The notes beneath the pieces are model-generated. The model was not told the origin of the DNA and ran no database searches. It saw only the letters and a list, made by a program, of their open reading frames with translations. Below, one piece after another: positions 3,101-6,100 of a DNA stretch of 64,000 nt (its first letter is position 1; every line of letters begins with the position of its first letter). Made by a program: the position numbers and the translations under genes. The stretch lies in contig OZ024857.1 of NCBI GenBank assembly GCA_964017155.1, positions 29,675,565-29,739,564 of the forward strand, given 5' to 3'. Source of the stretch: Oasisia sp. SBJ-2009. Its lineage: Eukaryota; Annelida; Polychaeta; Sabellida; Siboglinidae.

Positions 3101-6100
3101 GGGACCTTCAGCTGCCTCCTTCAAGTACGTCTCAAACAGTGCATACGGCACGTCATCTTCCTCATCCTCAGTCTCAGCCTCCCGCAGGAGCTGCTTCACC
3201 ACACACACGTGCAGGCGGTAGTACACCTGTAACACACATGCAGGCGGTAGTACACCTGTAACACACATGCAGGCGGTAGTACACCTGTAACACACATGCA
3301 GGCGGTAGTACACCTGTAACACACATGCAGGCGGTAGTACACCTGTAACACACATGCAGGCGGTAGTACACCTGTAACACACATGCAGGCGGTAGTACAC
3401 CTGTAACAAACATGCAGGCGGTAGTACACCTGTAACACACATGCAGGCGGTAGTACACCTGTAACACACGCAGGCGGTAGTACACCTGTAACACATGCAG
3501 GCGGTAGTACACCTGTAACACACATGCAGGCGGTAGTACACCTGTAACACACATGCAGGCGGTAGTACACCTGTAACACACGCAGGCGGTAGTACACCTG
3601 TAACACACATGCTGGCGGTAGTACACCTGTAACACACGCAGGCGGTAGTACACCTGTAACACATGCAGGCGGTAGTACACCTGTAACACACGTGCAGGCA
3701 GTAGTACACCTGTATCACACGCAGGCGATAGTACACCTGTAACACACATGCAGGCGGTAGTACACCTGTAACACACGTGCAGGCAGTAGTACACCTGTAT
3801 CACACGCAGGCGATAGTACACCTGTAACACACATGCAGGCGGTAGTACACCTGTAACACACGCAGGCGATAGTACACCTGTAACACACATGCAGGCGGTA
3901 GTACACCTGTAACACACACGCAGGCGATAGTACACCTGTAACACACATGCAGGCGGTAGTACACATGTAACACACGCAGGCGATAGTACACCTGTAACAC
4001 ACATGCTGGCGGTAGTACACCTGTAACACACGCAGGCGGTAGTACACCTGTAACACACATGCTGGCGGTAGTACACCTGTAACACACGCAGGCGATAGTA
4101 CACATGTAACACACATGCTGGCGGTAGTACACCTGTAACACACGCAGGCGGTAGTACACCTGTAACACACATGCTGGCGGTAGTACACCTGTAACACACG
4201 CAGGCGGTAGTACACCTGTAACACACATGCAGACGGTAGTACACCTGTAACACACGCAGGCGGTAGTACACCTGTAACACACATGCTGGCGGTAGTACAC
4301 CTGTAACACACGCAGGCGGTAGTACACCTGTAACACATGCAGGCGGTAGTACACCTGTAACACACGTGCAGGCAGTAGTACACCTGTATCACATGCAGGC
4401 GGTAGTACACCTGTAACACACGCAGGCGGTAGTACACCTGTAACACACATGCAGGCGGTAGTACACCTGTAACACACATGCAGGCGGTAGTACACCTGTA
4501 ACACACATGCAGGCGGTAGTACACCTGTAACACACATGCAGGCGGTAGTACACCTGTAACACACATGCAGGCGGTAGTACACCTGCAACACACATGCAGG
4601 CGGTAGTACACCTGTAACACACGTGCAGGCGGTAGTACACCTGTAACACACATGCAGGCGGTAGTACACCTGTAACACACGTGCAGGCGGTAGTACACCT
4701 GTAACACACGTGGAGGCGGTAGTACACATGTAACCCACGTGGAGGCGGTAGTACACCTGTAACACACATGCAGGCTGTAGTACACCTGTAACACACATGC
4801 AGGCTGTAGTACATCTGTAACACACATGTAGGCGGTAGTACACCTGTAACACACATACAGGCGGTAATACACCTGTAACACACACACAGGCGGTAATACA
4901 CCTGTAACACACACGCATGCGGTAGTACACCTGTAACACACGCATGCGGTAGTACACCTGTAACACACACGCATGCGGTAGTACACCTGTAACACACGCG
5001 CAGGCGGTACTACACCTGTAACACACGCGCAGGCGGTAGTACACCTGTAACACACATGCAGACGGTAGTACACCTGTAACACACGTGCAGGCGGTAGTAC
5101 ACCTGTAACACACGTGCAGGCGGTAGTACACCTGTAACACACATGCAGGCGGTAGTACACCTGTAACACACATGCAGGCGGTAGTACATCTGTAACACAC
5201 ATGCAGGCGGTAGTACACCTGTAACATACATGCAGGCAGTAGTACACCTGTAACACACATGCAGGCGGTAGTACACCTGTAACACACGTGCAGGCGGTAG
5301 TACACCTGTAACATACATGCAGGCAGTAGTACACCTGTAACACACATGCAGGCGGTAGTACACCTGTAACACACATGCAGGCGGTAGTACACCTGTAACA
5401 TACATGCAGGCAGTAGTACACCTGTAACACACATGCAGGCGGTAGTACACCTGCAGGCAGTAGTACACCTGTAACACACATGCAGGCGGTAGTACACCTG
5501 TAACATACATGCAGGCGGTAGTACACCTGTAACACACATGCAGGCGGTAGTACACCTGTAACATACATGCAGGCAGTAGTACACCTGTAACACACATGCA
5601 GGCGGTACTACACCTGTAACACACGTGCAGGCGGTAGTACACCTGTAACACACGTGCAGGCGGTAGTACACCTGTAACACACATGCAGGCAGTAGTACAC
5701 CTGTAACACACATGCAGGCAGTTGTACACCTGTAACACACATGCAGGCGGTAGTTCACCTGTAACACACATGCAGGCGGTAGTACACCTGTAACACACGT
5801 GCAGGCGGTAGTACACCTGTAACATATATGCAGGCAGTAGTACACCTGTAACACACATGCAGGCGGTAGTACACCTGTAACACACATGCAGGCGGTAGTA
5901 TGCCTGTAACACACATGCAGGCAGTTGTACACCTGTAACACATGATATCTCATTACACGTGGTAGTACACCTGCATAAATCAGCATAATCATGAAAACAT
6001 TGATTTTGGCTGATAAATAGAAGAATGCATGAAATTGGAAAATATGTGGCAGTACACGTGCACCTGTTGTAGTACACCTGTAATACAAAATGTGATGTCT

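What the first reader, a model, noticed from the sequence alone, without database searches (positions are those of the whole stretch)
3205..5942. A 2.7-kb minisatellite made from a cabin1 3' splice site and the first codons of its exon
On the minus strand each 29-bp unit ends one copy of GTTACAG|GTGTAC and starts the coding sequence VYYRLH of exon 3051-3226. About 94 acceptor copies therefore stand in a row before the true exon. All minus frames are open, so use of a distal acceptor would add peptide without stops, and frame returns every three units (87 nt). The spliceosome faces many identical choices. The array may tune splicing, create protein-length variants or simply be tolerated.
Basis: partly seen in the sequence, partly recalled or inferred. 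Interest (0 to 1): 0.87.

Follow-up and report, generated by a model that had tools for sequence, protein, structure and literature searches.

The report
Splice-site minisatellite in tubeworm CABIN1
In a tubeworm gene, the last few letters of an intron and the first 24 letters of the next exon have been copied about 95 times in a row, so the cell must pick one true splice site from a long line of near-identical copies; such 'mirage' repeats are known from lancelets, and this gene carries at least six of them.

Summary
The array is real. Ninety-five copies (75 x 29, 19 x 27, 1 x 18 bp), each 24 exonic plus 5 intronic bases (TACAG), stand directly before CABIN1 exon 3051-3226. 92 of 95 junctions keep AG, 89 keep AG|GT, and 31 decoys share the true acceptor's 23-nt context. 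The frame argument fails: the minus frames hold 1, 3 and 2 stops, and only 5 of 92 decoys read open through the exon. The host is a siboglinid tubeworm near Lamellibrachia. This is a 'mirage', a boundary-spanning minisatellite described in amphioxus (human ABCA7 has a similar VNTR). What is distinct: an annelid host, a unit so exonic that no consensus branch point lies in the 2.7 kb before the true acceptor, and recurrence: 6 of 11 arrays in CABIN1 contain an exon boundary, and a second locus shows the same. Most likely a tolerated local duplication, spliced at the exon-proximal acceptor. No RNA was available.

The parts
3227..5942 (-). Acceptor minisatellite: 95 units of 29/27/18 bp (24 exonic nt + TACAG) before E16
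3051..3226 (-). CABIN1 exon E16 ([11 protein letters not shown]...); its first 24 nt (3226-3203) are the exon-proximal copy of the unit
6524..6625 (-). CABIN1 exon E15 ([13 protein letters not shown]...VESLE), upstream partner
5961..6083 (-). Two diverged relic copies left of the array
28547..28814 (-). Acceptor array of CABIN1 exon E3 (44 bp x 6.1; true acceptor plus 5 decoy ACTCAG|GCTG sites)
326..567 (-). Donor array of CABIN1 exon E18 (27-30 bp; true donor plus 4 decoy CAG|GTA sites, other copies degenerate)
27520..28442 (-). 26 bp x 35.6 intronic array whose edge lies 33 nt from the E3 donor; it does not contain the boundary and the unit has no GT on the minus strand

Best explanation
It is a boundary-spanning minisatellite ('mirage'). 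Shown: the unit is the last 5 bases of the intron (TACAG) plus the first 24 bases of exon E16, repeated in tandem on the intron side, while the exon keeps its ancestral coding sequence. Inferred: a small tandem duplication across the acceptor grew by slippage or unequal exchange, most recently at the exon-proximal end. Inferred: E15 is joined to the exon-proximal (last) acceptor because the spliceosome pairs it with the body and donor of E16 (exon definition); TTAC of the preceding unit, A about 33 nt upstream, would serve as branch site and copied exon bases as pyrimidine tract. Joining to most other copies would give a frameshift or early stop, expected to be removed by nonsense-mediated decay. 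The array is tolerated rather than used.
For: Unit anatomy. Ancestral exon start: no insert or gap at -6 to +10 in 219 of 219 relatives, E(-1), R(+3) and K(+10) invariant. Genome search: other contigs at most 70%. The last-acceptor reading gives one open frame over 19 exons. The last 7 units are nearly uniform (0.14 edits per unit against 1.26-1.74 elsewhere). The same anatomy recurs at five more CABIN1 boundaries and at a second locus. Amphioxus mirages are reported not to disturb mRNA splicing (PMC3087553; PMC3902484).
Against: No RNA was seen, so use of the last acceptor is inferred. The true acceptor scores low for this gene (6.2; at least 22 of the 129 AGs of the intron score higher; matrix from the same gene) and the array has no YTNAY branch motif while the 591 nt to its left have 14, so a branch point left of the array with an upstream AG is not excluded. 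The excess of arrays at boundaries suggests a cause beyond passive tolerance.
Confidence: 0.75

Rival explanations
1. The array is functional: choice among decoys tunes CABIN1 output or makes protein-length variants.
For: 31 decoys share the true 23-nt context; 5 decoys would add 29 to 170 residues in frame.
Against: 87 of 92 decoys break the frame or hit a stop; no sign that AG|GT positions are protected; no insert in 219 of 219 relatives.
Confidence: 0.1
2. Serial re-splicing: each junction is AG|GT, so a wrong join rebuilds a donor and can be spliced again until the last acceptor is reached; the array is a chain of dual-specific sites.
For: AG|GT at 89 of 95 junctions; tandem AG|GT arrays are used in human UBC, with enrichment of such introns in tandem repeats (PMC10809524, abstract and passages).
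Against: The donor half is weak: CAG|GTGTAC scores 2.6 and GAG|GTGTAC, as joined to E15, 1.1, against 6.2-12.2 for the gene's own donors (where the mis-set E11 is left aside); they stand at the 83rd and 70th percentile of all GT sites on the minus strand.
Confidence: 0.07
3. An ordinary satellite entered cabin1 and its sequence became the exon start.
For: Weak GT-rich similarities, 68-70%, on C11, C8 and C6.
Against: The exon start matches CABIN1 of molluscs, a brachiopod, lancelets and vertebrates; the units of the C11, C8 and C6 arrays differ.
Confidence: 0.02
4. The copy number or unit order is partly an assembly artefact.
For: 117 different 100-mers occur more than once within the array.
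Against: 36 unit types in an uneven order; the array sits in a 58-Mb contig. No reads were seen.
Confidence: 0.06

Closest known systems
Amphioxus 'mirages': Adh3, globins BflGb6 and BflGb9, troponin C, PGBD5 (PMC3087553 and PMC3902484, passages read; the 2002 Adh3 paper seen only as a reference, not held)
   Same: Minisatellites made of an exon-intron boundary, on either the 5' or the 3' side; many but not all units keep AG/GT; units of 10-160 bp.
   Different: Those are chordates; the globin arrays have few copies (6 and 3 units in two haplotypes). Here 95 copies in an annelid, with 24 of 29 bases exonic, and six boundary arrays in one gene.
Human ABCA7 intron 18 VNTR (PMC5954066, passages read)
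   Same: 25-bp unit whose first two bases are the donor GT; about 12 to 427 copies; retention of one unit is a minor product and gives a frameshift.
   Different: Donor side; expanded alleles raise exon 19 skipping there. No RNA or allele data here.
Dual-specific splice sites in the polyubiquitin gene UBC (PMC10809524, abstract, outline and passages read)
   Same: Tandem units joined at AG|GT, any number of which could formally be an intron.
   Different: UBC units are coding and spliced stochastically; here units are intronic, 29 bp is not a multiple of 3, and the donor half is weak.
Earthworm metallothionein intron minisatellites (PMC12783039, passages read)
   Same: Large intronic minisatellites in an annelid gene.
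   Different: Monomers of 25-216 bp inside intron 1; the passages read do not describe them as spanning a splice site.

Membership tests
Mirage (boundary-spanning minisatellite) | Tandem repeat whose unit joins exon and intron sequence across a splice site | tested here: met
   24 exonic nt + TACAG, contiguous with the exon
Mirage (boundary-spanning minisatellite) | Many, not all, units keep the splice signal | tested here: met
   AG at 92 of 95, AG|GT at 89 of 95
Mirage (boundary-spanning minisatellite) | Repeat derived from the host gene's own boundary | tested here: met
   Exon start ancestral in 219 of 219 relatives; other contigs at most 70%
Mirage (boundary-spanning minisatellite) | Regular mRNA splicing not disturbed | not testable with these tools
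   No transcript of the host was found
Mirage (boundary-spanning minisatellite) | Length instability between alleles or cells | not testable with these tools
   One assembly only
Recursive or dual-specific splice-site array | AG|GT at unit junctions | tested here: met
   89 of 95
Recursive or dual-specific splice-site array | Donor half as strong as used donors | tested here: not met
   2.6 and 1.1 against 6.2-12.2
Recursive or dual-specific splice-site array | Use as both donor and acceptor in RNA | not testable with these tools
   No RNA
CABIN1 (host gene) | Sequence relationship to named CABIN1 proteins along the exons | tested here: met
   best named hits are CABIN1

The most novel reading that the evidence does not exclude
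In this tubeworm lineage exon-intron junctions are preferred birthplaces of minisatellites genome-wide, and the resulting AG|GT arrays are buffered by serial re-splicing, so that array length can run free without changing the protein. At E16 the copied exon sequence has taken over the roles of the intron's own branch site and pyrimidine tract.
Probability: 0.1. Interest if true: 0.75.

Novelty: new member of a known kind. Interest (0 to 1): 0.45.

Why it matters
Thirty-one decoys with the same 23-nt acceptor context are a natural test of how the spliceosome chooses among identical sites: local sequence cannot decide, so position relative to the exon must. Repeats of this build, named from lancelets, are found here in an annelid and at six boundaries of one gene. 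That makes it testable why minisatellites start at exon edges and whether they feed intron gain, as proposed for amphioxus globins (PMC3087553). My ten paper searches listed no report of such arrays from outside chordates; they cover open-licence papers only and I read passages of five papers.

Tried and rejected
Tried, little gain: transcripts or close relatives of the host (one Lamellibrachia satsuma fragment that ends before E13, and E17 open frames from other contigs that say nothing on this splice; 85% and 58% identical); viral contigs (no pattern match); prokaryote genome contigs (23 pattern matches, none a relative); Rfam over 1-30000 (none); RNA structure of 227 nt of the array (less stable than all 200 shuffles, z +2.84, no sign of a hairpin function); solved structures (weak or chance matches); Pfam on the CABIN1 part (weak TPR, below cut-off).

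Rejected: that the window is amphioxus (my first guess from the mirage literature). Branchiostoma proteins are 49% identical to it while two Branchiostoma are 94.7% alike, and a joint clade has AU p 0.001. Also rejected: that the array codes for protein (plus frames 60-62 stops each, minus frames broken).

Limits. Exons were first picked by eye with a recalled idea of human CABIN1, then checked by tblastn with named relatives. The splice matrix comes from the same gene's sites, which favours them; E11 was mis-set there and corrected later. The permutation tests used arrays of period 16 or more and 3 or more copies (5, 11); rows with shorter period (10972-11010, 82646-82691) and overlapping TRF rows were left out. 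The second locus came up through a chance match to acceptor-like words, so its 28-bp array is a biased find; its exons there are read from open frames, and the Pfam TRAPPC10 hint (E 3e-4, 21.2 bits, cut-off 27) rests on another exon.

Full report
1. The array. Tandem Repeats Finder reports 3203-5942, period 29, 95.2 copies, 88% matches. Cut at the ACAG|GTGTAC junction on the minus strand there are 95 intronic units followed by exon E16 at 3226: 75 of 29 bp, 19 of 27 bp, one of 18 bp, 36 unit types, 29 units identical to GTGTACTACCGCCTGCATGTGTGTTACAG. The exon begins GTGTACTACCGCCTGCACGTGTGT and then leaves the repeat, so the unit is 24 exonic bases plus TACAG. AG is kept at 92 of 95 junctions and AG|GT at 89 of 95. 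Two diverged copies lie left of the array. The last seven units are nearly uniform, 0.14 edits per unit against 1.26-1.74 elsewhere.

2. The gene. On the minus strand the window holds 19 exons with GT-AG introns that read 1210 residues without a stop; E16 starts in phase 0. It is CABIN1: two searches gave 229 and 855 relatives at E 0.001 or better, of which 120 each were listed, 219 in all. In these 219 the stretch from -6 to +10 around the E15/E16 junction aligns without insert or gap; E(-1), R(+3) and K(+10) are invariant, position 0 is V in 155 and L in 60. So the exon start is older than the array. One oddity: C at +7, which 0 of 219 relatives have (S 160, T 51, A 8).

3. The host. The window lies in an assembly of 764 Mb in 33 contigs. 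The nearest named protein is a Lamellibrachia satsuma CABIN1 fragment, 87% identical over exon E7, 94% over E8 and 97% over E12, from a siboglinid annelid. A tree of 25 proteins, made without that fragment, leaves the window beside mollusc rows with weak support (74/70) and outside a supported group (99/99) of chordates, a scorpion and one unnamed row. A clade with Branchiostoma is rejected (AU p 0.001). I therefore dropped my first guess of amphioxus.

4. What splicing faces. 31 of 95 decoys share the true acceptor's bases -20 to +3, and 10 are still identical over the 58 upstream bases, so local sequence cannot mark the true site. Only 5 of 92 decoys with AG keep an open frame through E16. 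The array has no YTNAY branch motif, while the 591 nt to its left have 14; the nearest approximation for the true acceptor is TTAC of the preceding unit, A at about -33. The acceptor scores low for this gene: 6.2, other exons 9.2-15.3 except E6 at 0.9 and E11, mis-set in that call; 22 of the 129 AGs of the intron score higher (matrix from the same gene). Exon definition from the E16 side is my inference. Mutations do not clearly avoid AG or GT: 3 of 24 distinct changes fall on the four AG|GT positions, about 3.3 expected; by cells 5 of 300 against 68 of 1875, p 0.085, ignoring relatedness of copies.

5. Not a lone case. In the window, array 28547-28814 (44 bp x 6) contains the acceptor of E3, with five decoys before the true one, and array 326-567 contains the donor of E18 with four decoy CAG|GTA sites. 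The rest of the gene was fetched from the same genome (L009-L019) and 14 further exons were placed. Three more arrays contain a boundary: L016:8899-9417 (54 bp, acceptor of N10, five decoys by a relaxed motif), L017:613-1311 (46 bp, donor of N9, 12 decoy GTGAGTA sites) and L017:1915-2510 (46 bp, acceptor of N8, 12 decoys). Of 11 arrays in the gene span 6 contain a boundary; 5 have an edge within 25 nt of one against 0.64 expected (25 of 100,000 random placements reach it) and 7 within 50 nt against 1.14 (1 of 100,000). Leaving out the exon-poor stretch of 29.7-89 kb: 5 of 9 (377 of 100,000) and 7 of 9 (104 of 100,000). In the window alone 3 of 5 within 25 nt (p 0.012) and 4 of 5 within 40 nt (p 0.004). 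A second locus on another contig (L021, hint of TRAPPC10) has a 53 bp x 25 array running from an open reading stretch through CAG|GTAGGT, and a 28 bp x 38 array ending at TTACAG|GTGG before another open stretch; these exons are read from frames, not proven.

6. Relation to what is known. These are 'mirages', the name used for amphioxus Adh3 and globin genes (PMC3087553, passages) and taken up for PGBD5 (PMC3902484, passage), where they were reported not to disturb splicing. Human ABCA7 has a 25-bp array starting at a donor GT, with exon 19 skipping rising with length (PMC5954066, passages). AG|GT tandem arrays are used as dual-specific sites in UBC (PMC10809524, abstract and passages). The E16 array is a new member of this kind. 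Its distinct points are the annelid host, the copy number, the almost wholly exonic unit and the company of five more such arrays in the gene. Why exon edges should seed minisatellites is the open question that this genome makes testable.

Noticed in passing
L016:8899-9417; L017:613-1311; L017:1915-2510 (window coordinates 92334-92852, 94048-94746, 95350-95945, beyond the window): Three further CABIN1 arrays that contain an exon boundary: acceptor of N10, donor of N9, acceptor of N8.
   Followed up: yes
L021:87-1420 and L021:4368-5429 (C8): A second locus with a donor-side 53-bp array (CAG|GTAGGT in the unit) and a 28-bp array ending at TTACAG|GTGG before an open stretch; weak Pfam hint of TRAPPC10.
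   Followed up: partly
L020:2559-6689 (C11): 29 bp x 143 array (TTGTTACATCTGTAACATACGTGATGCCA), about 70% like the E16 array over short stretches; surroundings not examined.
   Followed up: no
13901-13986: 24 bp x 3.6 repeat far from any CABIN1 exon, inside a 167-codon open stretch on the minus strand in the intron before E13.
   Followed up: no
33516-39715 and 39712-45919: Two adjacent 6.2-kb copies, 98.7% identical: a recent tandem duplication of mobile-looking sequence.
   Followed up: no
62025-63531: 60 bp x 25 array, 98% matches, in a stretch that stays open (a multiple of 3).
   Followed up: no
52098-54163 and 54498-56539: A pair of 2-kb copies, 87% identical.
   Followed up: no
3203-3226: E16 codes C at +7, found in 0 of 219 relatives, encoded within the last bases shared with the repeat unit; perhaps conversion from the array.
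   Followed up: no
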